Positions 20,217 through 40,583 of a stretch of DNA of 64,000 nucleotides are shown piece after piece. Source of the stretch: Halorientalis sp. (GTDB lineage Archaea > Halobacteriota > Halobacteria > Halobacteriales > Haloarculaceae); contig NZ_JAQCNH010000092.1 of the NCBI RefSeq assembly GCF_028275115.1, forward strand, positions 1 to 64,000, read 5' to 3'. A program made the position numbers and the translations under genes. Numbering within the stretch: position 1 is the stretch's first letter; every line of letters begins with the position of its first letter. The notes beneath the pieces are model-generated. The model had not been told where the DNA came from. It did no database searches and saw only the letters and a list, made by a program, of their open reading frames with translations.

Positions 20217-21701
20217 ATGACAGACCAGACAGAGACCGAGACCGTGGGACAGTTCCCGAACACGTCGCCGTCGACTCCGCTCGCGCCGGTGGTGCTCACA
20301 CGACTCGTGTGGGCGCTGTTCGTTGCGAGTCTCGGTGCACTCGTGGCGCGACTCTGGACCGAGGGCGGGTGGACGGTCGCCGGGTTGGTGGCTGTCGACG
20401 GCCTGACTGTCCTACTGTGGGTCGTGGTCTCCTTCTTCAGTGGCATCGTCCACAGCTACTCGCGGCGCTACATGGCGGGCAGCGAACACCTCACTCGCTT
20501 TTTCGCCCGGCTGTCCGTCTTCACCTTGGTCGTGATGGGTCTCGTCGCCGCCGACCACGTCGCGCTGTTCGGGGCCGCGTGGCTGGCGATGGGGCTGGTG
20601 ATGGCGGACCTGATCGGAACCGTCCGCGGCTGGCCACAGGCACGAACCGCCGCGACCCTCGCCCGCCGGTACTTCCTCGCCAGTAGCGCGTTGCTGGGTG
20701 CCGCACTCGTGACGCTGTCCTGGGCGACGGGTGCGACGACGATTTCGGCTATCCTGGCGAACGTCGCGGCCGCCCCGGAGTGGGTTTCGCTCGTGGCGGC
20801 CGGCCTGCTCGTCCTGGCGGCGATGGTCCAGTCCGCGCTCGTCCCCTTCCACACCTGGTTGCTCTCCTCGATGACCGCGCCGACGCCGGCGTCGGCGCTG
20901 ATGCACGCCGGGTTCGTCAACGCGGGCGGGATTCTCCTGCTCCGATTTGCCCCCGTCGTCACCGTCGACTCGACGTTCATGCTCCTGGTCGTGGCCGTCG
21001 GCGCGGCCAGCGCACTGCTGGGAAAACTCCTGAAAGCCGTCCAGTCCGACGTGAAGCGCAAACTCGGCTGTTCGACGACCGGGCAGATGGGATTCATGAT
21101 CGCACAGGCCGGTCTCGGCTTCTTCGGGGCCGCCATCACCCACCTGATCCTCCACGGGTTCTACAAGGCCTACCTGTTCCTCTCGACGGGGAGCCAGGTC
21201 GAACACACCAGCCCGAAGAAGTCGGCGACCGGGACGACGACGCTCCTCGGCGGCGTCGTGACGCTACTCACCGCGGTCGCCGGTGGTGTTCTGTTCGCGC
21301 TCGTCACCGGCAAGGGAACGCACGTCGACAGCGGCCTCCTGCTGACGGGTCTGATCTCGCTGACGACGCTGCACGCGACCTGGACCACCGTCCGGAACAC
21401 CGACCTCCAGGCAACCGTCCGATACGGCGTCGTCCCGTTGATTTTCCTGCCCGCCGTCGCCGTCTACGCAGGAGTCTACACCGCGGTCACGACCGTCCTG
21501 GCCGGCGTCCCGCTCGTGACCGTGCCGACCGACCTGACACCGGTCCACGGTGTCGTCGCGGTGGCGTTTCTCGCCGCGTACGTCGCCATCGAGACCGGCC
21601 TCTACCGGCGGAGCCACCGCCTGTACGTGGCGCTGGTGAACGCCTCACAGCCCGCGACCGGAACCGTGCTGACTTCGACGGAGGAGTACAATGAACACTG
21701 A
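20217..21701 (+). CDS. dabB: DabB: proton-conducting membrane subunit of inorganic carbon transporter
   Basis: A 494-aa polytopic membrane protein of the NuoL/MrpA (complex I antiporter-like) family with about 13 hydrophobic segments; conserved parts include LLSSMTAPTPASALMHAGFVNAGG and KRKLGCSTTGQMGFM with the membrane lysines. Next to DabA it forms the DAB pump that takes up inorganic carbon using a cation gradient. Start at 20217 (MTDQTETETVG) is preferred over 20136, as the promoter geometry puts the message start after 20136. It overlaps dabA by 11 bp, so translation is coupled. Confidence 0.88.
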   Translation: MTDQTETETVGQFPNTSPSTPLAPVVLTRLVWALFVASLGALVARLWTEGGWTVAGLVAVDGLTVLLWVVVSFFSGIVHSYSRRYMAGSEHLTRFFARLSVFTLVVMGLVAADHVALFGAAWLAMGLVMADLIGTVRGWPQARTAATLARRYFLASSALLGAALVTLSWATGATTISAILANVAAAPEWVSLVAAGLLVLAAMVQSALVPFHTWLLSSMTAPTPASALMHAGFVNAGGILLLRFAPVVTVDSTFMLLVVAVGAASALLGKLLKAVQSDVKRKLGCSTTGQMGFMIAQAGLGFFGAAITHLILHGFYKAYLFLSTGSQVEHTSPKKSATGTTTLLGGVVTLLTAVAGGVLFALVTGKGTHVDSGLLLTGLISLTTLHATWTTVRNTDLQATVRYGVVPLIFLPAVAVYAGVYTAVTTVLAGVPLVTVPTDLTPVHGVVAVAFLAAYVAIETGLYRRSHRLYVALVNASQPATGTVLTSTEEYNEH

Positions 21702-24117: not shown

Positions 24118-24347
24118 CCAGCACGGACGGTATCGGACGACTCACGACTCGGGACGCCGTCACCGCTCGCGGGTCGTTCGACACAGTGACGCGCCGCGGT
24201 CTCCGGAACACCGGTCGACGGGACGCCGGGAAAAGGTGCCTGGCTGGTTACCGGAGCGTACGTGATTTACGCCCGGCGTGAACGGCTGGGTTCTCTCACC
24301 GCGTCCAGGTGGCAAACCATCGAGTTCGCTGCCAGCTAACGGCGGGG

Positions 24348-25532
24348 TCAGTCCCTCCAAGACTCGGTCGGCTCACCCTCCTCGCCGTTCGATGCGGCGG
24401 CCTCTGCCTCCTGTAGCTCCTGTTCTAGCGTCGCGGTCGTCTCGTCGATTGGGGCGAGGCCGAACTCGTACATCCGTCCCGACGTCTCGACGTCCCGGAA
24501 CTCGTACATCACGCCGTCGTCGACGACGGCGTAGACGTCCTGTGCCTGGTCGTGAATGACCCGTTTCTCCGAGTCGATGGCGACGTCGACGAGGTCGAGC
24601 AGCGTCTCGACGGGGACGCGGGCGTACTCCCCCGAGTCCGGGAGCTTGCCGCGAGAGATCCAGTCGGCGTACCGCACACTCTCGTAGTACTTCTCGAACG
24701 TCTCGAAATCCTCGATGCGTCGGTCGACCGTCCTGACGAACACCGCGAGCACCAACGCGCCGATACCGGCGACGACCCACCACAGGGACCGACTGGGCAG
24801 ACTCGCTTCGGTCCCGGGGAACTCGACGGCGGCGGTGGCGACAGATGCGTTGACCGGCCGAGCCACGGTCGTCGAGTGGTTCCGCTCGACGACCTGTGGC
24901 GTGTCGAACTCGTAGGCGCGGCCGGAGACCGAAACCGGGGAGCTCAGGTTCACCTGCCCGGCGTAGGTTCCCGTGTCGTAACTCGCGTTGACGAGGATCC
25001 GGACTCGAACGATGCCGACCTCGTCCGCGGCGGCCTTGACCGCTGCCAGTCGCTCGCGTGCGAGGCGTCGGACGTCGAGTGTCACCGTGGTCCGGGAACG
25101 TCCGTCTGTCACCCGGCGGGTGGTCGATGCCAACTCTCGTCGTTCGGACCAGAACACCGCTTCGTCGCGTGCGGCCGAGAGTTCCAGCACGACGTCCTGG
25201 GTGACGACCACATCCTGGTCGGTTGGCACGTTAGTCCCCACGCGAAGCGTCAGATTCGGCGCCGCCGACAGCAGGTAGACCGGACGGTCGGACACCGTCT
25301 CCCCCTGGTCGTAGAGCGTGGTGTTCCCGGTCACGGTCGCCGTCGCAGTGAGCGAGGTACTGACGGCCTGCTGGTCGGTCTGGACCGTCGTCCGCTGTGG
25401 GTCGGGTGTGTCGGTTGCCCCGGCCGCCGCGCCGGCGAAGGCGAACGCGCTGGCGACGACGAGTGCTGCCACCAGCACTCGACCGTACTGCCCGCAGACG
25501 TATTTCAGTCTGAGCGGTAATCCCGCGCTCAT
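24348..25532 (-). CDS. DUF5305 membrane protein
   Basis: A 394-aa protein: N-terminal membrane helix (LVAALVVASAFAFAGAAAGA), an extracellular beta-rich part (about 45-250), a second helix (SLWWVVAGIGALVLAVFVRTV) and a cytoplasmic tail with YADWISRGKLPD and MYEFRDVETSGRMYEF, as in the DUF5305 family usually found beside SipW-type signal peptidases. Its own TATA box (cattatattatg on the minus strand, 25564-25575) lies about 35 nt upstream, so it can be expressed apart from the rest of the cluster. Possibly an assembly or anchoring factor for the surface fibre. Confidence 0.8.
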   Translation of the reverse strand: MSAGLPLRLKYVCGQYGRVLVAALVVASAFAFAGAAAGATDTPDPQRTTVQTDQQAVSTSLTATATVTGNTTLYDQGETVSDRPVYLLSAAPNLTLRVGTNVPTDQDVVVTQDVVLELSAARDEAVFWSERRELASTTRRVTDGRSRTTVTLDVRRLARERLAAVKAAADEVGIVRVRILVNASYDTGTYAGQVNLSSPVSVSGRAYEFDTPQVVERNHSTTVARPVNASVATAAVEFPGTEASLPSRSLWWVVAGIGALVLAVFVRTVDRRIEDFETFEKYYESVRYADWISRGKLPDSGEYARVPVETLLDLVDVAIDSEKRVIHDQAQDVYAVVDDGVMYEFRDVETSGRMYEFGLAPIDETTATLEQELQEAEAAASNGEEGEPTESWRD

Positions 25533-25607
25533 GTCGCACGCCTCTGGAACCCGACGAACTCGCTCATAATATAATGTTCACCGGTCGAACACTAATGTGC
25601 GCGCTAA

Positions 25608-25636
25608 CCCCCTGGTTGGCGGGGCACTTACCCGAG
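25608..25636 (-). promoter_or_regulatory. GGTAAG-type motif upstream of DUF5305 gene
   Basis: On the minus strand GGGTAAGTGCCCCGCC followed by an AGGGGGTTAG tract. It resembles the palindromic site at 28434-28451 (GAGGTAAGCACCTC plus CCCCCTAACGG), upstream of another gene in the same cluster. It lies about 45 bp upstream of the TATA box. Proposed shared regulatory site. Confidence 0.4.
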
Positions 25637-25779
25637 CGAAAGCGACGGTTCGAGCGGTGACGGTGTCCGTCTGGCCGTCGGTGGCCCCGTTCCGGTCTCG
25701 CTGGCTGGTGGGTTCGCGCCTACCACCGTGGAGCGAGCGCGTCCAGCCGCCCCGAAACGAGGCTGGGCGAGTCGGCCGC

Positions 25780-26625
25780 TCAGCGCCGGGGGTCGCTTCC
25801 CGTGTACGTCTCGTTGAGCACCTCGCGTCCGCCCGCCGTTTCGACCACGACAGTGTCTTTCCCGTTGTTCCAGATCGGCCTGCCCGAGTCCTGATACAGG
25901 TCGATTCGAGCGCTGGTCTCGCTGTCGGTCCCCGTGCCAGTTATTAGCTTCACTTTCTGGTCGGGCGCGACGGTCGTTCCCTGGGGAACGACGTACGGTG
26001 CCTGCGCCTCGTCCCGAACACTCCAGCCGGAGATATCGAGTGTCGTGCTCCCGGTGTTGGTGAACACGAGGAACTCGTCGTCGAGATTGTCGAACTCACT
26101 GCCGCGGGCGTTGGCGTTGATATCGGTGAGACGGAACCCGTCGGTGTTCTGTGCACAGCCGCTCGCATCGACCGTCGTCGACCGCGTCGCCGTCCCGGTG
26201 AACCGGGACCCGCTGGTCGTGGTGACGGTGAACGCGACAGTCTCCGGTGGTGACTCACAGCCGACAGTTACGGATGTCGTCGCCGACTCCCCCGGCGCGA
26301 GCGTCGTCTGTGCGTTCGACAGCGACCCCGAGGCGGTTTCGAGCGTGACCGCTGCGTTCACCGTCCGGTCCAGCCCGTTCGTCACGGTGACGAGCCGGCT
26401 CCTGTCACCGGCGGTCACACTGCCGGCGACCTCGAGACCGACGAGGCCGTTCGCATCGTCGGCCACAGCTGCCGTGGCTCCCCGCTCGAGGGTCCCCGAA
26501 CTGAACGCGGCAGTCGGACCGATGGTGAGGATTCCGAGAATAGCCACGAGAACGGTCACCGCGAGTAGCGAGGTGTACACCCGCCCCTTCCCGCCGCGCG
26601 AGCGCGACCGGCGACCGCGTCTCAT
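25780..26625 (-). CDS. Secreted TasA/DUF1102-like protein with C-terminal lamin-tail domain
   Basis: A 281-aa exported protein. An Arg-rich N-terminus (MRRGRRSRSRGGKGR) and one hydrophobic helix lead to TAAFSSGTLERGATAAVADDANGLVGLE, the pattern of SipW-dependent signal peptides and camelysin/TasA/DUF1102 subunits. The C-terminal half (about 165-275) is a lamin-tail-like Ig domain: FRLTDINANARG, DDEFLVFTNTGSTTLDISGW and YVVPQGTTVAPDQKV. Its ATG overlaps the stop of the signal peptidase gene (ATGA), so the two are translated together and the peptidase is likely its processing enzyme. Confidence 0.78.
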   Translation of the reverse strand: MRRGRRSRSRGGKGRVYTSLLAVTVLVAILGILTIGPTAAFSSGTLERGATAAVADDANGLVGLEVAGSVTAGDRSRLVTVTNGLDRTVNAAVTLETASGSLSNAQTTLAPGESATTSVTVGCESPPETVAFTVTTTSGSRFTGTATRSTTVDASGCAQNTDGFRLTDINANARGSEFDNLDDEFLVFTNTGSTTLDISGWSVRDEAQAPYVVPQGTTVAPDQKVKLITGTGTDSETSARIDLYQDSGRPIWNNGKDTVVVETAGGREVLNETYTGSDPRR

Positions 26626-27695
26626 CGCTCACCACCCAGTCGGCGAGACACCCGACGACGGGTGCCCCGGAGCGGAGCGAACGGGTCGACGAGCGCCCAG
26701 TAACACAGGTACAGCGGTCCGACTCCGGTGAGGACGGTCGCCAGTGCTGCCAGGAGCGGGTGCACACTGTGTAGTGCCGTCACGACGCCACGCGGTAGCG
26801 TCGCCGGATACGGATACATGTGGAGCGTGGCCGCGTGGACGCCGGACGTTTCCTGTGCCGGAACGGTGACCGTGACGTTCTGTTCCGAGGTGTCGAGGAG
26901 TCGCTGCCGGACCCGGTCGAGTCCGTCACCCCGCTCGGCGACAGTGCCGTTCGGACCAGCCGCGACCGGTGTGGTCTCGTCGATTCGCATCCCGTCGGCC
27001 CGAGTCACGAGGTGGGTGAACGGCGTCGACGCCGATCGGACGGTGAGTGACTCCGTTCGTTCCTCGCCGACGGACAGCACCCCGAGGTCCTTCGAGTCCT
27101 CGGCCGTGACTCGGTAGGTCTGCGTCTGATGGACGGCCGCCATCGACACGAGGACGACACCGACGAGGACCGCGACGACGAGTGCCGGCAAGATTACCTC
27201 ACGGCCACGAAGGACCGCAGGCCGGACACGCCGTCGAGACGACCGAGCGGCACTGATTGCCAACGCGCCGCCCAGTACTGTCACGACGGCGTACCAGTAC
27301 GTCCGGAGCAGCGAGAGCCCCGTTCCGACGTGCGGAACGACGAGCGGCCCGCCGCCGAGCGTCAGCACCTGTCCCGACACCGCAGACCGCTCGACGAGCG
27401 GATAGCCAGCCGCCTGGTCGGTGCTTGGGTTATTGTCGCCTTTCGTCACGATACCGTCGTCCGTCACCCTCATCGCACGGTGGGTGACGTAACTCCCGCG
27501 CTCGGCGGAGTAGAACGTAATCACGTCACCGGCCTCGACAGCCCCCGCGGGCACGAGGACGTACCCGCCATCCGGCTCGATGGTCGGTGCCATACTGTCG
27601 GACGTGACGTACGAAATCTGGACCGGTGAGGCCGCTGGCGCGACCAGCAGGGCGACCACGAGGACGACCGCGAGACCGACGAGCGTGCGCATCAT
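26622..27695 (-). CDS. Signal peptidase I, SipW/archaeal type, with large C-terminal extension
   Basis: A 357-aa membrane peptidase. Catalytic Ser34 lies in YVTSDSMAPT and the general-base position is His72 (YVTHRAM), the Ser-His arrangement of archaeal and ER peptidases rather than Ser-Lys; GDNNPSTD is the conserved D-box. The peptidase part ends near residue 130; then follow membrane helices and an extracytoplasmic part absent from housekeeping signal peptidases (TYRVTAEDSKDLGVLS), so this is a dedicated enzyme. Flanked by two secreted proteins with SipW-type N-termini, its probable substrates. Confidence 0.88.
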   Translation of the reverse strand: MMRTLVGLAVVLVVALLVAPAASPVQISYVTSDSMAPTIEPDGGYVLVPAGAVEAGDVITFYSAERGSYVTHRAMRVTDDGIVTKGDNNPSTDQAAGYPLVERSAVSGQVLTLGGGPLVVPHVGTGLSLLRTYWYAVVTVLGGALAISAARSSRRRVRPAVLRGREVILPALVVAVLVGVVLVSMAAVHQTQTYRVTAEDSKDLGVLSVGEERTESLTVRSASTPFTHLVTRADGMRIDETTPVAAGPNGTVAERGDGLDRVRQRLLDTSEQNVTVTVPAQETSGVHAATLHMYPYPATLPRGVVTALHSVHPLLAALATVLTGVGPLYLCYWALVDPFAPLRGTRRRVSRRLGGER

Positions 27696-27770: not shown

Positions 27771-28379
27771 TCAGGTCCCGTCGGAGACCGAGCCACCTTC
27801 GTCGACGTCGTCGATGGTGAACGCGAGGGTGCCCGAGAGGTCGTCCGTTGAGGTCACCGTCGCAGCGCCGTTGTGGCCAGTATCGACGACGACCACGACA
27901 TCGTAGGCGTCAGTGGCGGCCGCGTCGAGGGACGCTGTCTGGCCTTCCTCGGTGACGGTGCCGACCTGTGAACCGTCCTTGTAAATCTGGAACTTGAGGT
28001 TGGCGTCACTGTTACCATCGTCCACGTTGTGTGTGTATGCGACGTTGATAACGTGCGCCTCGTCGTCGTTGTTCTTGACCTGGAACGCGTGTGAGGTACC
28101 CGGATTCGCAGGGTCGCCGAGTTCGAAGAGCGCGTCGGTGTTCGCACCGGTTGCCGACCCGTTCTCGAAGTCGATCTTGAGTTGCTCCGTCGAAGGGTCC
28201 TGGAAGACGAGGTTCCCGGAATTGCCGTCGATCAGCGCCAGCAGACCGTTCTCGTCGGCCACGACGTCCGCGTTCGCCTGTCGCTCGACCGTCGCCGCGG
28301 TGAACGCACTCGCACCGACCGCCGTCGCTGCAACGAGGACGAGTCCGGCCACGAGTAACGTCTGTGTGATTCGTGCCAT
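27771..28379 (-). CDS. SipW-dependent secreted protein, TasA/camelysin-like fibre subunit
   Basis: A 202-aa exported acidic protein: MARITQTLLVAGLVLVAATAVGASAFTAATVERQ is a short signal peptide ending like SipW substrates, followed by ANADVVADENGLLALIDG and a beta-sandwich body with KNNDDEAHVINVAY. Such subunits polymerise by donor-strand exchange in TasA and archaeal bundling pili. I take the ATG at 28379; the ORF-track ATG at 28415 is only about 15 nt from the TATA-like caaataagtt and would lie before the message start. First gene of the cluster, 75 bp before the peptidase gene. Confidence 0.75.
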   Translation of the reverse strand: MARITQTLLVAGLVLVAATAVGASAFTAATVERQANADVVADENGLLALIDGNSGNLVFQDPSTEQLKIDFENGSATGANTDALFELGDPANPGTSHAFQVKNNDDEAHVINVAYTHNVDDGNSDANLKFQIYKDGSQVGTVTEEGQTASLDAAATDAYDVVVVVDTGHNGAATVTSTDDLSGTLAFTIDDVDEGGSVSDGT

Positions 28380-28433
28380 TGCATTCGAACAGAGTCGACG
28401 ACGCCGGATAACCATCAGCTAACTTATTTGTTT

Positions 28434-28451
28434 GCGAGGTGCTTACCTCGC
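28434..28451 (-). promoter_or_regulatory. Perfect palindrome just upstream of the TATA box of the fibre subunit gene
   Basis: GCGAGGT-gctt-ACCTCGC (7-bp arms) directly abuts the TATA-like caaataagtt (28422-28432) on its upstream side, the position of an activator site in archaeal promoters. A CCCCCTAACGG tract lies next to it (28452-28463). A related arrangement is seen at 25608-25636. Confidence 0.6.
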
Positions 28452-28463
28452 CGTTAGGGGGCC

Positions 28464-29321: not shown

Positions 29322-29337
29322 CTTACCAGCCGGTAAG
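29322..29337 (+). promoter_or_regulatory. CTTACC-N4-GGTAAG palindrome upstream of the phosphorelay operon
   Basis: CTTACCAGCCGGTAAG has 6-bp arms and lies about 100 bp before the first gene of the five-gene signalling operon; TATA-like sequences (ttcttattcg, accaaataac) follow at 29365-29388. The half-site GGTAAG recurs in the two motifs of the surface-fibre cluster, which may be coincidence. Confidence 0.4.
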
Positions 29338-29438
29338 TCGGCGGCTATCGGCCTCGTTAGCGAGTCTTCTTATTCGATACCAAATAACGAGCGTAGCATG
29401 GACCACGACAGAGTGTATCCGCCGTGCTGGGGGAGAGA

Positions 29439-29933
29439 ATGGGTGTGACAGACGACGACGGCGGCGGCCGACAGGACTGGGCGGATGTCCTGCTCGTCGA
29501 AGCGGACCCGGCCGACGCCCGACTGATTTCGTGTGGGTTCCAACGACAGTCCGTGACCACAGATGTCGCCCCGGATGGGCGAACGGCAATCGAGCGACTC
29601 TCGACCGCGAGCGACGAGCGAACCGACGACCGACTCCCACGTCTCATCGTCCTCGACCTCGCCATCGGACCCCTCGACGCCGAGACGATTCTCCACGCGG
29701 TCAAATCGAGTCCGCGACTTGGATTGGTCCCAGTCGTCACGCTGAGTGACAGCGACGAGCACACTGCGGCCACGGACACCGACGCCGAACGGGCCTACGA
29801 CCTGGGCGCGAACGCCCATTTCAGCAAACCGGACGACGTCGAGCGGTACGTCGACGGCATCGAGCGGTTGGCGGCCTTCTGGTTCGAGTGGGCGACGTTT
29901 CCGCCAGAACTGTTATCTGTCGATGGAGCGTGA
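29439..29933 (+). CDS. Response regulator, receiver domain only
   Basis: A 164-aa single receiver domain: acidic start VLLVEADPADARL, phosphoacceptor aspartate in LPRLIVLDLAIGPLDAE, Thr in VPVVTLSDSD and the lysine in NAHFSKPDD. A loop of about 10 residues is inserted after the Thr strand (DEHTAATDTDAERAYD). Like Rcp1-type regulators it has no output domain and probably shuttles phosphate. First gene of the operon; the next starts 7 bp after its stop. ATG at 29439 taken as domain-proximal. Confidence 0.82.
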   Translation: MGVTDDDGGGRQDWADVLLVEADPADARLISCGFQRQSVTTDVAPDGRTAIERLSTASDERTDDRLPRLIVLDLAIGPLDAETILHAVKSSPRLGLVPVVTLSDSDEHTAATDTDAERAYDLGANAHFSKPDDVERYVDGIERLAAFWFEWATFPPELLSVDGA

Positions 29934-29940
29934 GATTGTT

Positions 29941-30837
29941 ATGAATTCGTTCGACAGTTCTGCCGACAGTTCCGGTGTGCCGGACTATCTGGTCGAGAGC
30001 GCGGCGCTCCTGTCGAAGAAGTGGCATCCGGCGATCGTGCGATGTGTCGCTGCCGGGGACGGTCTCGGGTTCAGTGACCTCGAAAACAGACTCAACGGCA
30101 TCTCGGCGAAAGTACTGACCGACGCACTGGAGGAACTGCGAGACCACCAGATTCTCGACCGCACGGAGGTGCGCCAGGAGCCGCTCCGCGTCGACTACAC
30201 GCTGACCGAGCGGGGGCAGGACTTCGCAGCTGTCATCGACTCGCTGGCCGACTGGGGCGAACAGTATCTCGCGCCCGACGACGAGGAACAGGTGGTGCTG
30301 GTCGCAGAGGACGACCGACGCATCGCGGAGATGCACACGGTCTGGCTCGAAGACGAGTACACCGTCCACACCGCACACGACGGCGAAGAGGCGCTTCGGG
30401 AACTCGATACGGGCGTCGACGTCGTCGTCCTCGACCGGCGAATGCCGGGGCTCTCCGGCGACGAGGTGCTCGACTGGATTCGGTCGCAGGGGTACGACTG
30501 CCGGGTCGCCCTCGTCACCTCCGAGGAGCCGGACCTGGACGCCGTCGCCCTCGGGTTCGACGAGTACGTCGCCAAGCCAATCCTCAAAGACGACCTCCGT
30601 GCGGTGGTCTCGGACCTCTTCGACCGGGCTGAGTACGACCGCGAGGTGAGACAGTTCCTCGCACTGCAGGCGAAACTCGCGGTGCTCGAAGCCGAGAATC
30701 CGGAGCCGGAACTCGCGGCGAGCGAGGAGTACAGCCGACTCGAAGCGCGGCTCGAAGACGCCCGCGAGCAGGTCGACGAGGACGACGACATCGAAGCACC
30801 AACACTGGACCGGCTGGGGGTGGACCCGTCCCGATGA
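29941..30837 (+). CDS. HxlR winged-helix - receiver - HalX response regulator
   Basis: A 298-aa regulator with an unusual order. Residues 15-110 are a full HxlR-type winged helix (SKKWHPAIVRCVAAGD, FSDLENRLNGISAKVLTDALEEL, RVDYTLTERG). Residues 115-230 are a receiver domain with phosphoacceptor Asp in VVVLDRRMPGLSG and Lys in EYVAKPI. The C-terminus (about 230-290) is HalX-like, ending in a coiled segment. DNA binding at the N-terminus of a receiver protein suggests that phosphorylation controls transcription directly. The ORF track's 65 upstream codons overlap the previous gene. Ends in ATGA overlap with the kinase gene. Confidence 0.85.
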   Translation: MNSFDSSADSSGVPDYLVESAALLSKKWHPAIVRCVAAGDGLGFSDLENRLNGISAKVLTDALEELRDHQILDRTEVRQEPLRVDYTLTERGQDFAAVIDSLADWGEQYLAPDDEEQVVLVAEDDRRIAEMHTVWLEDEYTVHTAHDGEEALRELDTGVDVVVLDRRMPGLSGDEVLDWIRSQGYDCRVALVTSEEPDLDAVALGFDEYVAKPILKDDLRAVVSDLFDRAEYDREVRQFLALQAKLAVLEAENPEPELAASEEYSRLEARLEDAREQVDEDDDIEAPTLDRLGVDPSR

Positions 30838-33800
30838 GCTCCGAATTGGACACCGGCGCGATACGGAACAGTTCGCCGGCAGCGGTACTGGACCGGGTCG
30901 ACGAGGCTATCTACGCACTCGACACCGACTGGCAGTTCGAGTACATCAACGACCGGGCAGCCGAGATACTCGAACGTGACCCCGACAGCCTGCTCGGCGA
31001 GACGATTTGGGACGCGTTCCCAGCCGTCGCCGACACCGAGGCGTACGAGACGTTCCGCGACGCGATGGACACCGGTGAGCCAGCGCGATTCGACATGCAG
31101 TACGAACCGTGGGACGCGTGGTACTCCGTTCGGGCCTATCCCGACGCGGACGGGATTACGATCTGCTTCTACGACGTCACCGACGAACGGGGTCAACAGC
31201 TCGAGTTGCAGCGCAAACAACGACTGTTCGAGACCGTCTTCGAGGACACCGACGACGCGCTCGTCATCGCCGACCCGGACGGTCGGCTCACCGAGCTCAA
31301 CCCCGCTGCGGAACGATTGTTCGGCTACGACGACGTCGACACCCAGGACGAGAGTCTGTCACTCCTGTACGCCGACGAGAACGAGTACGAGCGCCGGGGC
31401 GAACGGCGCGACAGCCACGTCGCCGAGTACCAGCGCGCGGACGGTACGACCTTCGAGGGTGAGACAGTCGCCACGCCGCTGGACGGACCCAACGGCGAGG
31501 CGCTCGCGTTCCTGACCTCGATCAGAGACGTGAGCGCCCGTATCGAATACGAGGAACGGATGCAGCAGCGCAACGCGGCACTCCGGTCGTTCCACGAGAT
31601 TACGACCGACTCCGGGCGGTCCTTCGAGCGACGACTGACGGCGGTGCTGGAACTCTGCTGTGACCACCTGGACCTCGACGTCGGTCGTCTCGTCGCCGTC
31701 GACGACGACGAGTACACCGTCGAGGCGTCCGTCTCGTCGGGCGATTCGTCCGCGCCTGGTGACGCGGTCACGCTCGACGAGACGTTCTGTGAGTTCGTCG
31801 TCGACGCAGACCGTGTCGTCAGTTTCGACGGTGTGACTACTGGCGAGGTCACGGACCACACCGCGTGCCAGGACCGAGGCGTCGAGTCGTATCTGGGTGC
31901 GCCCGTGGTCGTGGACGGTGACCGCTACGGGACACTGAGCTTTTCTCGGCCGACGCCACGCGGTGAACCGTTCACCGAAAGCGACGAGACGTTCGCCCGC
32001 GTGCTGGCACAGTGGGTCGGCAAAGAGTTGAGTCGTCGCCGCCAGCGAGAGCGGGCCCGTGCGAGTCGCCGCCGGTTGCGCCAGATTATCGACATGCTGC
32101 CACAGTTGGTGTTCGCAAAGAAGGAGACCGGCGAGTTCCTGCTGGCGAACGAAGCCGTCGCCGAGGCCTACGGCACGACGGTCGCCGACCTCGAGGGGAG
32201 CACGGACGCCGACTTCGCCGACTCCCAGACGGAGGCCGACCAGTTCCGTCGAGACGACCGTGCGGTCATCGAGTCCGGGGAGCCAAAACACATTCCAGCG
32301 GAATCGCTGACCACCGCCGACGGCGAGCGGCGTGTTCTGGAGACGACGAAGATTCCCTACGACCCCGTCGATGCGGACGGTCACGCCGTACTGGGCGTCT
32401 CGACGGACATTACCGAACGCGAAGCACGTGAGGTCGAACTCGAGGTCCAGTCGGCGGCGATGGAGGCGTCGATGGACGGCATCTCGATCCTGAACACCGA
32501 CGGGGAGTACATCTCCATGAACGAGGCCCACGCCGCCGTGTTCGACTACGACCCGGCGGCCCTCATCGGCAGCTCCTGGCGACGGCTCTACGACGCCGAC
32601 GAGGTCGAGCGGATCGAGGAGACGGCGTTCCCGACGCTCGAACGTGCGGGCGAGTGGCGCGGCGAGACCGTCGGGATGCGACGGGACGGCAGCCCAGTCT
32701 ACCAGGAGATCACACTCTCGCTGCTCGACGACGGCAAACTGATCTGTACGAACCGGGACATCACCGCGCGCAAACAGCGTGAGCAGGAACTCGAACGGTA
32801 CGAGGCACTCGTCGAGAGCATGGACGAGGCCGCACTCGTCGTCGACAGCGATGGTCGCATCGAGTACGCAAACAAGGCATCGGCCTCGTACACGGGAGCG
32901 ACAGTCGACGACCTCGCCGGTCGGTCGATAGAGACGCTCGCCGAGGAGATGACGACGAACGACGAGGACCCGGACCGACTCGTCGGGGCAGTCGAGGCGA
33001 CTCTGGACGGAGGGACAGCGCCGGACCGATTGGAGGTGGCGCTAGATCTCCCGACGAGGACGGCGGTTATGGAGTACCAGCCGTCGTCGTTCCGTTCTGA
33101 CGGCAGGCGGAAGGCGGTCGTCGTCGCCCGGGAGGTCACGGAACGTAGAGCGCGCGAACGGAAACTCGAGCGCCAGCGGAGCAGAACCCGGGCACTGTTC
33201 GACGACTCGCCCGACAGCATCATCGTTCACGACGCCGACGGTGCCATCGTCGACGCGAACGAGACACAGGTCGAGATGCTGGGCTACGACCGGGAAACGC
33301 TGCTCTCGATGAACGTGTCGGAGTTCGAGGTCGGCCTGAGTCGAGCGGACCTCCGTGACGTGTGGGCCGACATGAGTATTGGCGAGACACTCAAAACAGA
33401 GGGAAAACATCGTCAATCGAACGGCCTCGTCTGTCCGGTCGAGGTCTGGATTGCCAAGACCGAGGTCGACGACGAGCCGCGATTCGTCGCGGTCTCCCGC
33501 GACATCAGTGAGCGGAAGACTCGCGAACTGGAACTCGAACGCAACCGTGAGTTCCTCGAAAAGACCCAAGAAAGCGCCGCAATCGGCGGGTGGGAGATCG
33601 AATTCGGAACGGGTGACCTGCAGTGGACCGACGAGGTCTACCGCATCCACGACCTGCCACTCGACGCCGACCCCACGCTAGCCGACGGGTTCGAGTACGT
33701 CCATCACGAGGACAGACCCACGGTCACTACGGCGTTCGAGCAACTGCGGACCGAGGGCGAGTCGTACGACCTCGAGGTTCGAGTCGTCACTGCCGACGAC

Positions 33801-36365
33801 GACGTGCGCTGGGTGCGAACGATCGGTGACCCACAGTTCGACGGAGCCGGCGAGGTCGTCGGCGCTCTCGGCACGTTTCAGGACATCACCGAGCGCAAAG
33901 AACGTGAGCAGGACCTGCGAGAACTCACGGAGCGACTCGACTTGGCCGTCGAGGGTGCGAACCTCGGTGTCTGGGACTGGAACGTCGAGACCGACGCCAT
34001 CGTTTTCAACGAGCAGTGGGCGCGGATGCTCGAGCTCTCGCCGGACGACATCGAACCGACGTTCGAGACGTGGAAACAGCGGGTCCACCCGGCCGACACG
34101 GACCGCGTCGAGGCGGCACTCGAGGCACATGTGGCCGGTGAGACGGAGCTGTATGATTGCGAACACCGGATGCAGACTGCAAGCGGGGACTGGAAGTGGA
34201 TCAGAGACGTCGGCAGGGTCGTCGAACGGGACGCAGACGATGAGCCAGTCCGTGCGGTCGGTATCCACCTCGACGTCACGGACCAGAAGGAGACAGAGAC
34301 CTCCCTCGAAGAGGAGCGAGACATGTTCGCACAGGGGCCGGCTGTCGTCTTCAAGTGGCAGAATGCAGACGGGTGGCCCATCGAGTACGTCTCGGACAAC
34401 GTCACCGAGACGTTCGGCTACACGCCGGCCCAACTCGAATCGGGCGACGTACCGTACATGAATTTAGTCCACGACGACGACCTCGAGCGGGTCGCCGCTA
34501 AAGTCGAGGGACACAGCGACGAGACGACAGAACGGTTCGGTCACGACCCTTACCGGATGGTCACCGCCGAAGGAGCGGTAAGGTGGGTGAAAGACCACAC
34601 CAAGATCATCCGCAACGACGGGGAGGTCACACACTATCTCGGCTATCTCATCGACATTACCGAACGGAAAGAACTCGAACAGTCGCTCCGCGACAGCGAA
34701 CGGTCGCTCCGCGAGGTTACGGAAATCGCCTCGGACACGGAGCGTGCGTTCCAGCCGAAACTGGAGGCGATCCTCGAACTCGGCTGTGAGCGACTCGACC
34801 TCTCGTACGGATTTCTGAACCGGATCGACGAGGACACCCAGCACGTCGTCGAAGCGACGGGAACACACCCACGGCTCCAGCCCGGCGAATCGGCTCCGCT
34901 CTCGGAGACGTACTGCCGGAATACGATCGAGCAGGACACGGTGCTCGACATCGCCGACGCCGCCGCTGGGGGCTGGGAGGACGACCCTGCCCACGGTGCG
35001 TTCGAGCTTGGCTGCTACATCGGGGGCAAAATCATCGTTGAAGGCGACGTGTACGGGACACTCTGTTTCGCGGACGACGATAGCCGTGCCAAGACCTTCG
35101 ACGAGACAGAGCGAGCCTTCGTCGAGTTACTCGTCCAGTGGCTCAGTTACGAACTCGAGAGCAACGCCGTCGAGACGAAACTCCGGGAACTCAACGAGAC
35201 CGCACAGCGACTGCTGGCGACCGGTGACGCCGACGAGGTCGGGTCGGCCGCGACCGAGAGCGCGAGTGCGGTACTCGACCTGCCGATAACGGGCGTCTGG
35301 TGGTACGAGGAATCGGCCGACGCGCTCGTCCCCGCAGGCATGACCGACGAGGCCGCGGCGGTAATCGACACCCAGCCGACGTTCGACGGTGGTGGCTCAC
35401 TGGCCTGGGAGGCGTTCGCCGACGGCGAGACACGACTGTACAACGACGTACACGCCGCCGACGAGGTGTACAACGAGGAGACGCCCATGCGATCCGAGGT
35501 CATCGTCCCCCTCGGTGAACACGGGGTGTTGATCAGCGGCTCCAGACAACAGCGGGCGTTCTCCGAGACCGACCGGGAACTGCTCGAAATCCTCTCGGCG
35601 ACCGTTGAGGACGCGCTGAACAGAGCCGAGCGCGAGCAGGTGTTACGGGAAACCCGTGAACGTCTCACCCAGTCGAACCAGGATCTGGAACAGTTTGCGT
35701 ACGCGGCGTCCCACGACCTCCAGGAGCCCCTGCGGACGATTTCGAGTTATCTCACACTGCTGGAACGACGCCATCGGGACGACCTCTCCGGGGACGCGCT
35801 GGAGTTCATCGACATCGCCGTCGACGGTGCCGACCGGATGCGGGAGATGATACAGGCACTCCTGGCGTACTCACGTGTCGGGACGCGCGGCGACGCGTTC
35901 GAGCCGACGGACATGGCTACCGTCTTCGAGGCGGTGACGCGGAACCTGTCGGTGACTATCGAGGAGGCCGACGCGACCGTCGACGTTCCAGAGGACGAGG
36001 CCGCAGGGACCGTCGTCGGCGACCAGAGCCAACTCGTCCAGTTGTTCCAGAACCTCGTCGAGAACGGTATCAAGTACAGCGAGGACGACCCGCGGGTCGA
36101 AGTATCGGTCGAACGCAACGACGAGGCGCTCGAGTTCGCCGTCACGGACAACGGCATTGGCATCGCGCCCGACCAGGTTGAGGACATCTTCGAGGTGTTC
36201 CAGCGACTCCACACCCGTGCGGAGTTCGAGGGCACCGGCATCGGCCTCTCGCTCTGTCAAAAGATCGTCGACCGTCACGGCGGCGACATCCGGGTCGAAT
36301 CGTCGCTCGACACGGGCTCAATCTTCTTCATCACGTTGCCCGTAGAGGTGGACACACGTGACTGA
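30834..36365 (+). CDS. Giant cytoplasmic sensor histidine kinase with about nine PAS and three GAF domains
   Basis: An 1843-aa kinase without membrane segments. By eye the order is PAS (13-125), PAS (126-248), GAF (250-405), PAS (412-538), PAS (539-654), PAS (655-780), PAS (781-903), PAS (904-1035), PAS (1036-1161), PAS (1162-1290), GAF (1295-1440), GAF (1450-1602), HisKA (1610-1680, phospho-His in FAYAASHDLQEPLR) and HATPase (1720-1835, N box NLVENGIKY, G boxes TDNGIGIAPD and GTGIGLSLCQ). PAS units end with the usual DITERK-type linkers. Ligands are unknown; several PAS-GAF inputs suggest redox, light or small-molecule sensing. It overlaps both neighbours by a few bases. Confidence 0.92.
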   Translation: MSSELDTGAIRNSSPAAVLDRVDEAIYALDTDWQFEYINDRAAEILERDPDSLLGETIWDAFPAVADTEAYETFRDAMDTGEPARFDMQYEPWDAWYSVRAYPDADGITICFYDVTDERGQQLELQRKQRLFETVFEDTDDALVIADPDGRLTELNPAAERLFGYDDVDTQDESLSLLYADENEYERRGERRDSHVAEYQRADGTTFEGETVATPLDGPNGEALAFLTSIRDVSARIEYEERMQQRNAALRSFHEITTDSGRSFERRLTAVLELCCDHLDLDVGRLVAVDDDEYTVEASVSSGDSSAPGDAVTLDETFCEFVVDADRVVSFDGVTTGEVTDHTACQDRGVESYLGAPVVVDGDRYGTLSFSRPTPRGEPFTESDETFARVLAQWVGKELSRRRQRERARASRRRLRQIIDMLPQLVFAKKETGEFLLANEAVAEAYGTTVADLEGSTDADFADSQTEADQFRRDDRAVIESGEPKHIPAESLTTADGERRVLETTKIPYDPVDADGHAVLGVSTDITEREAREVELEVQSAAMEASMDGISILNTDGEYISMNEAHAAVFDYDPAALIGSSWRRLYDADEVERIEETAFPTLERAGEWRGETVGMRRDGSPVYQEITLSLLDDGKLICTNRDITARKQREQELERYEALVESMDEAALVVDSDGRIEYANKASASYTGATVDDLAGRSIETLAEEMTTNDEDPDRLVGAVEATLDGGTAPDRLEVALDLPTRTAVMEYQPSSFRSDGRRKAVVVAREVTERRARERKLERQRSRTRALFDDSPDSIIVHDADGAIVDANETQVEMLGYDRETLLSMNVSEFEVGLSRADLRDVWADMSIGETLKTEGKHRQSNGLVCPVEVWIAKTEVDDEPRFVAVSRDISERKTRELELERNREFLEKTQESAAIGGWEIEFGTGDLQWTDEVYRIHDLPLDADPTLADGFEYVHHEDRPTVTTAFEQLRTEGESYDLEVRVVTADDDVRWVRTIGDPQFDGAGEVVGALGTFQDITERKEREQDLRELTERLDLAVEGANLGVWDWNVETDAIVFNEQWARMLELSPDDIEPTFETWKQRVHPADTDRVEAALEAHVAGETELYDCEHRMQTASGDWKWIRDVGRVVERDADDEPVRAVGIHLDVTDQKETETSLEEERDMFAQGPAVVFKWQNADGWPIEYVSDNVTETFGYTPAQLESGDVPYMNLVHDDDLERVAAKVEGHSDETTERFGHDPYRMVTAEGAVRWVKDHTKIIRNDGEVTHYLGYLIDITERKELEQSLRDSERSLREVTEIASDTERAFQPKLEAILELGCERLDLSYGFLNRIDEDTQHVVEATGTHPRLQPGESAPLSETYCRNTIEQDTVLDIADAAAGGWEDDPAHGAFELGCYIGGKIIVEGDVYGTLCFADDDSRAKTFDETERAFVELLVQWLSYELESNAVETKLRELNETAQRLLATGDADEVGSAATESASAVLDLPITGVWWYEESADALVPAGMTDEAAAVIDTQPTFDGGGSLAWEAFADGETRLYNDVHAADEVYNEETPMRSEVIVPLGEHGVLISGSRQQRAFSETDRELLEILSATVEDALNRAEREQVLRETRERLTQSNQDLEQFAYAASHDLQEPLRTISSYLTLLERRHRDDLSGDALEFIDIAVDGADRMREMIQALLAYSRVGTRGDAFEPTDMATVFEAVTRNLSVTIEEADATVDVPEDEAAGTVVGDQSQLVQLFQNLVENGIKYSEDDPRVEVSVERNDEALEFAVTDNGIGIAPDQVEDIFEVFQRLHTRAEFEGTGIGLSLCQKIVDRHGGDIRVESSLDTGSIFFITLPVEVDTRD

Positions 36366-36804
36366 CGGGACCCACCAGGCGTCCGCCGCACAGGTGCTAG
36401 CCGTCGAAGACAATCCTGGCGACGTCCGACTCCTGGAAGAAGGTGTCGGAGCCGCCGACGCGAGCCTCGAGCTACACGTGTGTAACAACGGCAGACTGGC
36501 TATCGAGCGGCTCACCGGCGACGGCGGACCTGCACCCGACCATCCCGATCTAGTGCTACTCGATCTGAACCTGCCGGGAAAGTCCGGACTGGAGGTCCTC
36601 CAGGCGATTCGAGACGACACGCAGTTCGACACCGTGCCGGTCATCGTCGTGTCGAGTTCCGAGAATCCCGACGACGTCCGGGGCGTCTACGAGCACGCCG
36701 CGAACGCGTACGTCACGAAACCGGCCGACCCCGACGAGTACATCGAGGCCGTCGCCGCCGCCGTGCAGTTCTGGATTCCCGGGGTGACCGAGACGGATGA
36801 CTGA
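36358..36804 (+). CDS. Response regulator, Rcp1-like receiver only
   Basis: A 148-aa receiver with GTG start overlapping the kinase stop by 8 bp. VLAVEDNPGDVRLLEEG, phosphoacceptor in LVLLDLNLPGKSGLEVL, VPVIVVSSSENPDD and the lysine NAYVTKPADPDEY are complete, so it should accept phosphate from the kinase. The C-terminal FWIPGV is typical of Rcp1-type regulators that pair with phytochrome-like kinases. It overlaps the next gene by 8 bp. Confidence 0.9.
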   Translation: MTDGTHQASAAQVLAVEDNPGDVRLLEEGVGAADASLELHVCNNGRLAIERLTGDGGPAPDHPDLVLLDLNLPGKSGLEVLQAIRDDTQFDTVPVIVVSSSENPDDVRGVYEHAANAYVTKPADPDEYIEAVAAAVQFWIPGVTETDD

Positions 36805-37891
36805 AACCCCGCCCGAACGGTTCCTGCTCGTCGAGGACAACCCAGCCGACGTGCGCCTGATCGAAGAGTACGTCGACGAACAGTCATGGCCGGAACTGGA
36901 CGGGAAGCCGACGATTACCCAAGTAGACCGACTGGTCGACGCCATCGAGGCACGAACCGACGACACAGACCTCGTGCTGCTCGACCTGGGACTCCCGGAC
37001 AGCACCGGGTTCGACACGCTCGAGCGGATGCTCTCGGCCGCCGTCGACGAACCCGTCGTCGTACTCACGGGTCTCGACGACGAACGCGTCGGTGTCGATG
37101 CCGTCGAGCGCGGTGCGCAGGACTATCTCGTCAAGGACGACCTCACGCCGAAACTCCTCCAGCGGACGGTCCGGTACGCCGTCGAGCGCGAGCGCCAGCA
37201 GCGACGACTGAAGCGGCGTAACGAGGAACTGGCGCTTCTCAACCAGATCGTGCGTCACGATATCAAAAACGACGTGACGGTCATCCTCGGCTGGGGCGAC
37301 GGCCTCCGGGAGCACGTCGACCCGGCCGGCGAACCGTACCTCGAGCGGATGATGAGTGCCGGCGACCACATCACCGGCATCGCCGAGACGGTCGGGGACT
37401 TCCTCGAGATTCTCGAAGGCGACAAGCAACCCGAGTTACAGCCTATCGGCCTCGGACGACTCCTCGAGACCGAAATCGAAAAGACCCGGTCCGCACACGA
37501 GTCGGCGACTGTCTCGGTGACCGGCGACCTGCCGCACGGCCTGAACGTCGCTGCGACCGAACTGCTCTCGTCGGTCTTTCGCAACCTCCTGAACAACGCC
37601 GTCATACACAACGACTCGAACCAGCCCGTGGTCACGGTCACCGTCGAAGTCGAACCGGAGACAGTCACCGTCGGCATCGCTGACAACGGTCCGGGCATTC
37701 CCGAGAGCCAGCGCGACGAGGTCTTCGGTCGCGGTGAGATGGGGCTCCAGAGCCCCGGGTCGGGAATCGGACTGTACCTCGTCGACACCCTCGTCGACAT
37801 GTACGATGGCGACGTTCACCTCGAGGACGACGACCCGGAGGGCAGCGTGTTCACCGTCACTCTCCACCGAGCGCGCCACGGTACCGACTGA
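36797..37891 (+). CDS. Receiver - histidine kinase hybrid
   Basis: A 364-aa protein: N-terminal receiver (FLLVEDNPADVRLIEEY, Asp in LVLLDLGLPDSTGFD, lysine in DYLVKDDL), then a HisKA-like helix with NQIVRHDIKNDVTVILGWGD (phospho-His H152 region, HDIKND type) and HATPase with NLLNNAVIHND, IADNGPGIPES and GSGIGLYLVDTL. The receiver-before-kinase order and lack of sensor domain suggest it reads phosphorylation from the upstream kinase and passes it on. Last gene of the operon. Confidence 0.88.
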   Translation: MTETPPERFLLVEDNPADVRLIEEYVDEQSWPELDGKPTITQVDRLVDAIEARTDDTDLVLLDLGLPDSTGFDTLERMLSAAVDEPVVVLTGLDDERVGVDAVERGAQDYLVKDDLTPKLLQRTVRYAVERERQQRRLKRRNEELALLNQIVRHDIKNDVTVILGWGDGLREHVDPAGEPYLERMMSAGDHITGIAETVGDFLEILEGDKQPELQPIGLGRLLETEIEKTRSAHESATVSVTGDLPHGLNVAATELLSSVFRNLLNNAVIHNDSNQPVVTVTVEVEPETVTVGIADNGPGIPESQRDEVFGRGEMGLQSPGSGIGLYLVDTLVDMYDGDVHLEDDDPEGSVFTVTLHRARHGTD

Positions 37892-39326: not shown

Positions 39327-40583
39327 ATGGAGGTTAGGCGTACCGCGCCGGTCAAACTCGTTGTTCCCGACGAATACCACGACGACCTCCACGAAACTGC
39401 CGACCAGTTCCTCTATTGTGCAAATGAGGCGAGTGACTACTGCTGGGACAACGCCGACTACGAAGACTGCGTCACCTCGAACGTGACAGCCAGAGATGCG
39501 TTGTACGACCGACTCCGCGAGGAAACAGACCTGACAGCGAATCTCGTTCAAGAAGCCATTCGGCGTGCCGTCCACGCCGTCGATAGTGGTGTTGACCGCT
39601 GGAAAAAAGGCAAACGGACGAACAAACCAGAGTTCACCTCGTGGAGTATGGTCTACGACAAGCGGAGTGCGACGTTCTACCGGAACAAGATCTCGCTTTC
39701 GACGGTGAACGGGCGCATCGAGTGTGAGTTTGAGTTGCCAGCGGACAGTCCAACACCATACGAGGAGTACGTGCTTTCCGACGACTACGAGCTTCGGACG
39801 AGTACACTCCAGTACGACCAAGCGACTGACGAGTTCTACTTCCACGTCAAAACGCGGCAAGTAGACGACGAAGGCGAGGCTGTTGAACTTGAGGGTTCGG
39901 ACGATACCGGGCATCAAACTGTCCTCGGGATCGACCTCGGCGTGAACAGCCTTGCTGTTTCGTCAACAGGCACGTTCTGGAGTGGTGACGAGTACGACCA
40001 CTGGATACAGGAGTTTGAGAAGCGCCGCGCAGAGATGCAACAGCGTGGGACACAAGCTGCTCACAACGCCTTGTTGCGGCTTGGAAAGCGAGAGCGAGCA
40101 TGGCGGAAACAGTATATCCACACAGTCGCCAACGAGATTGTTGCCGAAGCGGTTGCCCACGAGTGCGACGTGATCGTATTCGAGGACTTGATTGATATTC
40201 GAGAGCGGCTGCCCCACGCTAACTGGCATCACGTCTGGGCATTCCGTCGCCTGTACGAATACGTCGAGTACAAGGCTCCTGAACAGGGTGTGGCGGTTGA
40301 GGAGGTCGAGCCAGAGCATACGAGCCAGCGGTGCTCGCACACCGATTGTGGCTTCACCCATGAAGATAACCGCGACGGCGAGCAGTTCCAGTGTCTGAAG
40401 TGTGGATACGAGATCAACGCGGACTACAACGGCGCGAAAAACGTCGGATTGCGGTACATGCGGAAGCGACAACACGGACTGCGTTCCTCGCCCACGTCGG
40501 GGAGCGCAGACGCACCAGTAGACGTGCGTATAAATAGTGGGATGTTGAACAGCGACGGCTATCGGCCAACTGCCGACAGTTGA
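39327..40583 (+). CDS. tnpB: TnpB, RNA-guided nuclease of a solo IS1341/IS605-type element
   Basis: A 418-aa intact TnpB. RuvC catalytic residues are all present: Asp in GIDLGVNSLAVSS, Glu in VIVFEDLIDIRERL and Asp in NADYNGAKNVGLR; the zinc finger is CSHTDCGF ... CLKCGYE. It starts MEVRRTAPVKLVVPDEYHDD. TATA-like tttttaag lies about 30 nt upstream. No tnpA is adjacent, so movement would need a transposase in trans. It sits between Get3 and aIF2-beta, without disrupting either. Of the three TnpB loci in the window this is the only one able to encode protein. Confidence 0.93.
   Translation: MEVRRTAPVKLVVPDEYHDDLHETADQFLYCANEASDYCWDNADYEDCVTSNVTARDALYDRLREETDLTANLVQEAIRRAVHAVDSGVDRWKKGKRTNKPEFTSWSMVYDKRSATFYRNKISLSTVNGRIECEFELPADSPTPYEEYVLSDDYELRTSTLQYDQATDEFYFHVKTRQVDDEGEAVELEGSDDTGHQTVLGIDLGVNSLAVSSTGTFWSGDEYDHWIQEFEKRRAEMQQRGTQAAHNALLRLGKRERAWRKQYIHTVANEIVAEAVAHECDVIVFEDLIDIRERLPHANWHHVWAFRRLYEYVEYKAPEQGVAVEEVEPEHTSQRCSHTDCGFTHEDNRDGEQFQCLKCGYEINADYNGAKNVGLRYMRKRQHGLRSSPTSGSADAPVDVRINSGMLNSDGYRPTADS

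What the first reader, a model, noticed from the sequence alone, without database searches (positions are those of the whole stretch)
29439..37891. Five-gene phosphorelay operon built around an 1843-aa kinase
Receiver, HxlR-receiver-HalX, multi-PAS/GAF kinase, Rcp1-like receiver and receiver-kinase hybrid are packed with overlaps of 4-8 bp or a 7-bp gap. Such a complete set (three stand-alone or fused receivers, two kinases) suggests an integrated sensory relay with both transcriptional and non-transcriptional output. The nine PAS units are unusually many.
Basis: partly seen in the sequence, partly recalled or inferred. Interest (0 to 1): 0.6.

Follow-up and report, generated by a model that had tools for sequence, protein, structure and literature searches.

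The report
Relay circuit controlling haloarchaeal matrix pili
Five overlapping genes in a salt-loving archaeon form a conserved signalling relay, and shared DNA control sites suggest that its one job is to switch an adjacent gene cluster for biofilm-type surface fibres, which gives a first testable target for a regulator family of unknown function.

Summary
Five genes (29439-37891) are packed with a 7-bp gap and overlaps of 4, 8 and 8 bp. They encode a receiver, HxlR-REC-HalX, a 9-PAS/3-GAF kinase, a receiver, and a receiver-kinase. Seven further loci in six other haloarchaeal genomes keep the exact order. The first gene is a degenerating pseudo-receiver. The PAS array is not fixed: orthologous kinases carry 3-10 PAS modules through clean whole-module losses.

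The main result lies outside the given coordinates. A tandem palindrome, CTWAC-N6-GTWAG-N7-CTWAC-N6-GTWAG, abuts the promoter of the relay operon. In the whole genome (<=3 mismatches) it occurs at only three other places, all in this window. Two lie upstream of an adjacent divergent cluster: a pilin-like secreted protein (best fold match: Pyrobaculum bundling pili, TasA-like), a SipW-type signal peptidase, an LTD protein and a DUF5305 protein. Site, promoter geometry and cluster recur with the relay elsewhere. Distant HxlR-REC relays beside the same cluster carry a variant half-site at the same 23-bp register.

Best reading: a dedicated phosphorelay in which HxlR-REC-HalX controls its own operon and a matrix-pilus cluster. 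Binding, direction of control, phosphate flow and signal are inferred.

The parts
29439..29933 (+). g1, degenerate (pseudo-)receiver, 164 aa
   Evidence: Pfam Response_reg 26.4 bits, below cut-off; acidic pair EA in place of ED, Asp and Lys kept here but lost in most orthologues
29941..30837 (+). g2, HxlR-REC-HalX response regulator, 298 aa (alternative start 29923); predicted DNA-binding output
   Evidence: HxlR 3.6e-20, Response_reg 2.2e-18, HalX 2.8e-15; phospho-Asp D165 and K212 invariant in 16 relatives
30834..36365 (+). g3, 1843-aa cytosolic-type histidine kinase: 2 PAS, GAF, 7 PAS, 2 GAF, HisKA, HATPase_c
   Evidence: H-box FAYAASHDLQEPLR conserved in 10 of 11 relatives
36358..36804 (+). 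g4, stand-alone receiver with intact E-D/D/S/K residues
   Evidence: Response_reg 1.3e-18; residues
36797..37891 (+). g5, receiver-histidine kinase hybrid (REC-HK), 364 aa, no sensor domain
   Evidence: H-box QIVRHDIKNDV and DNGPGI box
29322..29360 (.). Operator 1: tandem palindrome CTTACCAGCCGGTAAG-N7-CTATCGGCCTCGTTAG, 5' of the relay operon
   Evidence: 19/20 positions; whole-genome search; conserved in other class A loci
29367..29374 (+). TATA-like element directly downstream of operator 1
   Evidence: alignment of promoters
29398..29448 (+). 16-codon leader ORF whose stop overlaps the g1 start
   Evidence: 8/8 loci have a 10-17 codon leader with stop/start overlap
28419..28457 (.). Operator 2, 5' of the pilin-like gene
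   Evidence: 1 mismatch; 39 bp from the start codon, as in nearly all relatives
27771..28379 (-). secP: pilin-like secreted protein, SipW-type signal peptide (...GASAFTAAT), 202 aa
   Evidence: profile hit to PDB 9p0a 'Pilin' E 6.4e-4; AlphaFold model best matched by 7ueg (Pyrobaculum bundling pili) and 7pnb (Sulfolobus filament)
26622..27695 (-). SipW/archaeal-type signal peptidase, 357 aa
   Evidence: TIGR02228 sigpep_I_arch 53.6 bits, over cut-off; Bacillus SipW model below its cut-off; invariant H72 and SDSM motif
25780..26625 (-). secreted protein with lamin-tail domain (LTD)
   Evidence: PF00932 1.2e-14
25604..25642 (.). Operator 3, 5' of the DUF5305 gene
   Evidence: 2 mismatches; same position in relatives
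25529..25567 (-). 12-codon leader ORF overlapping the DUF5305 start (ATGA)
   Evidence: 12 codons in 7 of 8 loci, 11 in the other
24348..25532 (-). DUF5305 membrane-anchored protein, beta-sandwich ectodomain in the model
   Evidence: PF17231 9.7e-34; model pLDDT 80.6
24313..24351 (.). weak fourth operator-like site at the 3' end of the cluster, not seen in the congener
   Evidence: 3 mismatches

Best explanation
The five genes form one dedicated phosphorelay. The cytosolic PAS/GAF kinase g3 and the receiver-kinase g5 sense and integrate signals and exchange phosphate through the receivers g4 and g5-REC onto HxlR-REC-HalX (g2). g2, as a pair of dimers, binds two adjacent CTWAC-N6-GTWAG palindromes (one per dimer, 23 bp apart) directly upstream of the TATA box. 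It thereby controls (most likely activates) its own operon and the divergent neighbouring cluster for a SipW-processed, TasA/bundling-pilus-like surface fibre (secP-sipW-LTD, DUF5305). g1 is a pseudo-receiver that probably acts by protein contact rather than phosphorylation. Shown by sequence: gene order and its conservation, residues, operator sites, their confinement to this locus, promoter geometry, co-occurrence. Inferred: that g2 is the binder, direction of control, phosphate route, fibre formation, and the signal. The second GAF from the kinase has three Cys invariant in 11 orthologues, so redox is a guess.
For: Operon order conserved in 8/8 class A loci of 7 genomes. Operator sites with <=3 mismatches in this genome: 4, all in the window (reversed control 0); same confinement in G255, G310 and G277, the last with two complete copies of the system. 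Score 17-19 of 20 against at most 15 in 30 random windows. Over 394 genomes, <=2 mismatches: all 7 class A genomes against 12 of 387 others (reversed control 9 genomes); all listed class A sites lie inside relay/target clusters (Fisher 2e-10, no phylogenetic correction). The SipW homologue above 280 bits occurs in 6 of 394 genomes, all class A. Operator abuts the TATA box and the first ATG is about 36-39 bp on in most promoters. Distant HxlR-REC relays (G193, G052) beside the same cluster carry the variant half-site GTWAC at the same 23-bp register and place. Natural fusion of g3 sensor modules with the g5 kinase core in Halonotius. A REC-HK gene or its fused form lies beside HxlR-REC in all 25 loci examined.
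Against: No binding, transcription or phosphotransfer data. G202 has the relay and its own operator but no pilus cluster at the locus and only a weak SipW homologue. Class B relays mostly lack strong operators. The variant-operator genomes have only few and weaker matches. The fold match of secP is weak (E 2e-3, TM about 0.4, model pLDDT 71). Activation versus repression cannot be told from site position, since the operator probably overlaps the BRE.
Confidence: 0.72

Rival explanations
1. The operator is bound by some other regulator encoded elsewhere; the relay operon is merely another target of it, and g2 acts on other DNA or not on DNA.
For: No binding data; g2 has not been shown to bind; G202 keeps the g1 operator without the pilus cluster.
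Against: No strong operator outside the relay/target clusters in class A genomes, so a separate global regulator would have no other targets; the half-site changes together with the HxlR-REC clade; g2 is the only protein with a recognised DNA-binding domain in the conserved unit.
Confidence: 0.13
2. Two partly separate pathways share an operon: g3-g4 (Cph1/Rcp1-like) gives a non-transcriptional output such as motility, and g5-g2 alone controls the pilus genes.
For: Class B keeps g2 and g5 (and often a g4-like receiver) without g3; g3 has the H-box type seen with Rcp1-like receivers (own knowledge); both Halohasta copies place an operator before a chemotaxis transducer gene.
Against: Natural fusion of g3 sensor with g5 kinase core; invariant coupling and overlaps of g3, g4 and g5.
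Confidence: 0.2
3. Co-conservation reflects transfer of a gene island only, with no functional link between relay and pilus cluster.
For: Patchy distribution: 7 of 394 genomes, in two families, absent from most congeners.
Against: Shared 39-bp operator at identical promoter positions in both halves; in the Halorubrum MAG (G342) the cluster with its operators lies on another contig than the relay, although assembly breaks may explain this.
Confidence: 0.06

Closest known systems
HxlR-REC-HalX response regulators of Halobacteria (Galperin et al. 2018, PMC5847659, Table 2)
   Same: Identical domain order; listed there as a known architecture
   Different: That census says HalX function and DNA binding are undocumented; no operon, operator or target was described in the passages read
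Bacillus subtilis tapA-sipW-tasA matrix operon under SinR (PMC9674648)
   Same: Dedicated SipW-type peptidase next to a fibre protein with Ala-aromatic after the cleavage site
   Different: Control by a phosphorelay instead of SinR; no TapA; LTD and DUF5305 proteins instead; TasA homology only at fold level
[quoted passage not shown]
   Same: Top structural match of secP
   Different: 13% identity, weak score; fibre formation untested
Cph1-Rcp1 type kinase/receiver pair (own knowledge)
   Same: g3 H-box type and stand-alone receiver right downstream
   Different: No phytochrome domain found; embedded in a five-gene operon with a DNA-binding regulator
HVO_1356-1358 motility-related two-component system of Haloferax volcanii (PMC7824242)
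   Same: Haloarchaeal PAS/GAF kinase + receiver + HalX-containing DNA-binding regulator; surface phenotype
   Different: Regulator is Bat-type (HTH_10), no HxlR
Methanosarcina acetivorans hybrid kinase MA4377 with REC-only proteins (PMC11784639)
   Same: Experimental precedent for REC-only proteins in archaeal phosphotransfer
   Different: Membrane-bound, different operon

Membership tests
Two-component phosphorelay | Kinase with phospho-His and ATP site; receivers with acidic pair, Asp and Lys | tested here: met
   g3 and g5 H-boxes and g5 DNGPGI; g4 residues; g2 D165, K212. Not met for g1
Two-component phosphorelay | Phosphotransfer between the proteins | not testable with these tools
   needs biochemistry
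Functional receiver (g1) | Acidic pair, phospho-Asp, Thr/Ser, Lys | tested here: not met
   acidic pair incomplete 8/8, Asp lost 5/8, Lys lost in 6/8
HxlR-REC-HalX response regulator | HxlR, REC and HalX domains in that order | tested here: met
   all above Pfam cut-offs
SipW / ER-type signal peptidase | Ser-His rather than Ser-Lys dyad; family model match | tested here: met
   SDSM motif, invariant THR histidine; TIGR02228 above cut-off; the Bacillus SipW-specific model not reached
TasA / archaeal bundling pilin superfamily | Beta-sandwich fibre subunit, fold match | tested here: inconclusive
   best PDB match 7ueg, prob 1.00 but E 2e-3 and TM about 0.4; profile hit to pilin 9p0a E 6e-4
TasA / archaeal bundling pilin superfamily | SipW-type cleavage site with aromatic residue at P2' | tested here: met
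   A[F/Y]T after the hydrophobic stretch in all 17 homologues, as in TasA TWA-AF
TasA / archaeal bundling pilin superfamily | Donor-strand assembled filament | not testable with these tools
   needs electron microscopy
Cph1/Rcp1 | Bilin-binding GAF/PHY photosensor | tested here: not met
   no PHY domain in Pfam scan

The most novel reading that the evidence does not exclude
HxlR-REC-HalX relays are a haloarchaeal class of single-locus regulators of extracellular matrix, each recognising a double palindrome 5' of the TATA box of an adjacent fibre or polysaccharide cluster; sensor breadth is tuned by clean loss of whole PAS modules, and a pseudo-receiver sets the relay's state without phosphate.
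Probability: 0.35. Interest if true: 0.75.

Novelty: new variant of a known kind. Interest (0 to 1): 0.62.

Why it matters
HalX regulators are abundant in haloarchaea (>550 proteins listed in the 2018 census) and have no documented function. Here a member comes with a predicted operator, a closed set of targets, conserved promoter geometry and a second, diverged regulator/operator pair as a natural specificity control. One gel shift and one deletion would settle it. If true it also ties an archaeal TasA-like fibre to a dedicated phosphorelay, the counterpart of matrix control in Bacillus but with unrelated regulators. The orthologous kinases with 3-10 PAS modules form a ready-made deletion series for asking what multi-PAS arrays do.

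Tried and rejected
Class B flanks (glycosyltransferase, polysaccharide deacetylase, beta-helix proteins) were examined as common targets. Perfect operators (spacing 24) occur only in G326 and Haloarcula amylovorans, so class B control by this operator is not claimed generally. A recent tandem amplification of PAS modules was rejected: within-protein PAS identity is mostly about 20-40% (48% for one pair), while slot-by-slot orthologues are mostly 41-97% identical. DNA repeats in g3 are mainly the coding of the DITER linker. A light-sensing role was considered (photolyase-related gene beside the Halonotius fusion) and left as unsupported. Structure search of DUF5305 gave only generic beta-sandwich matches. 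Bacterial promoter/terminator scan is not informative here.

Full report
Observation. Pfam gives a weak receiver for g1, HxlR + receiver + HalX for g2, PAS/GAF/HisKA/HATPase for g3, a receiver for g4 and receiver + HATPase with a weak HisKA for g5. Profiles built here divide g3 into 2 PAS, GAF, 7 PAS, 2 GAF and the kinase core, so nine PAS is right. There are four receivers, not three.

Conservation. A search of 394 genomes of the order with g2 and inspection of neighbourhoods separates three groups. Class A keeps all five genes in order: G255 (Halorientalis salina), G202, G310 (Halorubrum sp. Boch-26), G277 (Halohasta salina, two copies), G169 (Halonotius aquaticus), G342 (Halorubrum MAG). 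Class B has HxlR-REC-HalX and REC-HK, often with a receiver between, and no large kinase. Class C has more distant HxlR-REC with other kinases. The window's genome falls in the same genus as G255, hence Halorientalis. A REC-HK gene or its kinase core stands beside HxlR-REC in every one of the 25 loci, so g2 + g5 is the core and g3 an addition.

The big kinase. Modules of g3 are orthologous slot by slot between species (mostly 41-97% identity), while modules within one protein are mostly only 20-40% alike. Species differ by whole modules missing with linkers intact: 10 PAS in G202, 9 here, 8 in H. salina, 6 in Halorubrum Boch-26, 3 in Halorubrum LUM.57. The array is an old series that loses units, not a recent expansion. 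The two GAFs next to the kinase are always kept. The first of them (window g3 residues 1292-1445) has three Cys (YCR, GCY, TLCF) invariant in all 11 orthologues; a redox or cofactor role is only a guess. In Halonotius a single protein joins g3-like PAS-PAS-GAF (49% identity) to a g5-like kinase core (56%), which argues that g3 and g5 serve one pathway.

g1. The window copy keeps the phospho-Asp and Lys but has E-A in place of the acidic pair. Across 8 orthologues the pair is never complete, Asp is Gln or Lys in five, and the conserved Lys is kept only here and in H. salina. It is retained as a gene in these operons, so a non-phosphorylated, contact-based role is likely (inference).

Operator. 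Comparison of sequence 5' of g1 showed two palindromes CTWAC-N6-GTWAG in a fixed 23-bp register. In the window the tandem element scores 17-19 of 20 at four places only, while 30 random windows reach at most 15 and other spacings in the real window reach at most 17, mostly at the same places. In the whole 3.5-Mb assembly (92% complete) the same four places are the only matches with up to 3 mismatches, and the reversed control has none. G255, G310 and G277 show the same confinement, with eight sites in G277 for its two systems. In 394 genomes with up to 2 mismatches, all 7 class A genomes have the element against 12 of 387 others; the reversed control occurs in 9 genomes, so the 12 are close to background. 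Fisher p is 2e-10, without correction for relatedness.

Targets. The other sites precede secP (28419) and the DUF5305 gene (25604); a weaker one (24313) lies at the 3' end of the cluster and is not seen in the congener. The cluster is secP, a SipW/archaeal-type signal peptidase (TIGR02228 above cut-off; catalytic His conserved), an LTD protein and a DUF5305 protein. The secP signal peptide ends in SAFT/TAYT-like motifs, with an aromatic residue where TasA has one. Its profile finds PDB 9p0a, 'Pilin' (E 6.4e-4). The AlphaFold model (pLDDT 71) is best matched by Pyrobaculum bundling pili and a Sulfolobus filament. Scores are weak, so 'pilin-like' is the claim. The signal peptidase at more than 280 bits occurs in 6 of 394 genomes, all class A; G202 lacks it.

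Promoter geometry. In relay, secP, DUF5305 and chemotaxis-transducer promoters the element is followed at once by a TATA-like stretch and in most cases by the first ATG about 36-39 bp on. For g1 and DUF5305 that ATG opens a 10-17 codon leader ORF (12 codons in 7 of 8 for DUF5305) whose stop overlaps the real start. This pattern fits leaderless mRNAs with translational coupling (inference). Lying just upstream of TATA, the element may recruit or block TFB; I lean to activation, weakly.

Specificity control from nature. G193 and G052 carry a diverged HxlR-REC relay beside the same cluster. Their secP and DUF5305 promoters have GTWAC in place of CTWAC half-sites, same 23-bp register, same place. 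Other haloarchaea have the cluster next to Bat-type regulators with no such element. This links the operator to the HxlR-REC regulator rather than to the cluster.

Class B. Perfect elements at spacing 24 precede secreted beta-helix proteins in G326 and Haloarcula amylovorans, and flanks carry glycosyltransferases and a polysaccharide deacetylase, but most class B loci show only weak sites. A general matrix role for the family is therefore open.

Known context. HxlR-REC-HalX is listed as an architecture in the 2018 archaeal census, which states that HalX function and DNA binding are undocumented (PMC5847659). The literature searches run here found no paper on this operon or operator; only open-licence papers are held. 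TasA-SipW control in Bacillus uses SinR (PMC9674648). REC-only proteins take part in archaeal phosphotransfer in Methanosarcina (PMC11784639).

Verdict. A real, conserved phosphorelay operon, ordinary in its parts, with a new and testable regulon prediction and three unusual features: a pseudo-receiver, a lossy PAS array, and confinement of all strong operator sites to one locus. The phosphate route, signal, DNA binding and direction of control remain inferred.

Noticed in passing
window 29398-29448 and 25529-25567: Leader micro-ORFs of 10-17 codons overlap the starts of g1 and the DUF5305 gene in 8/8 loci each; peptide sequence is not conserved.
   Followed up: partly
window 39327-40583: TnpB-like / OrfB_IS605 (Cas12f1-like TNB) gene two genes downstream of the relay.
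   Followed up: no
window 20217-24117: Inorganic carbon transporter pair (Proton_antipo_M protein and DabA) next to the pilus cluster.
   Followed up: no
L163:12764-14977 and L161:380-2449: Both Halohasta copies have a chemotaxis transducer gene with the operator in its promoter, divergent from the relay.
   Followed up: partly
L189-L198: The secP-SipW-LTD-DUF5305 cluster recurs in other haloarchaea, in several cases beside Bat-type or other REC-PAS-GAF proteins, suggesting replacement of one regulator type by another.
   Followed up: partly
L040:3459-5568: In G202 a weak operator lies 80 bp before an adjacent 663-aa GAF/PAS kinase gene.
   Followed up: no
L046, L047: Halonotius fused-kinase version lies next to a photolyase-related (DPRP) gene.
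   Followed up: no
window 24313-24351: Fourth, weak operator-like site near the 3' end of the DUF5305 gene, with no obvious promoter.
   Followed up: partly
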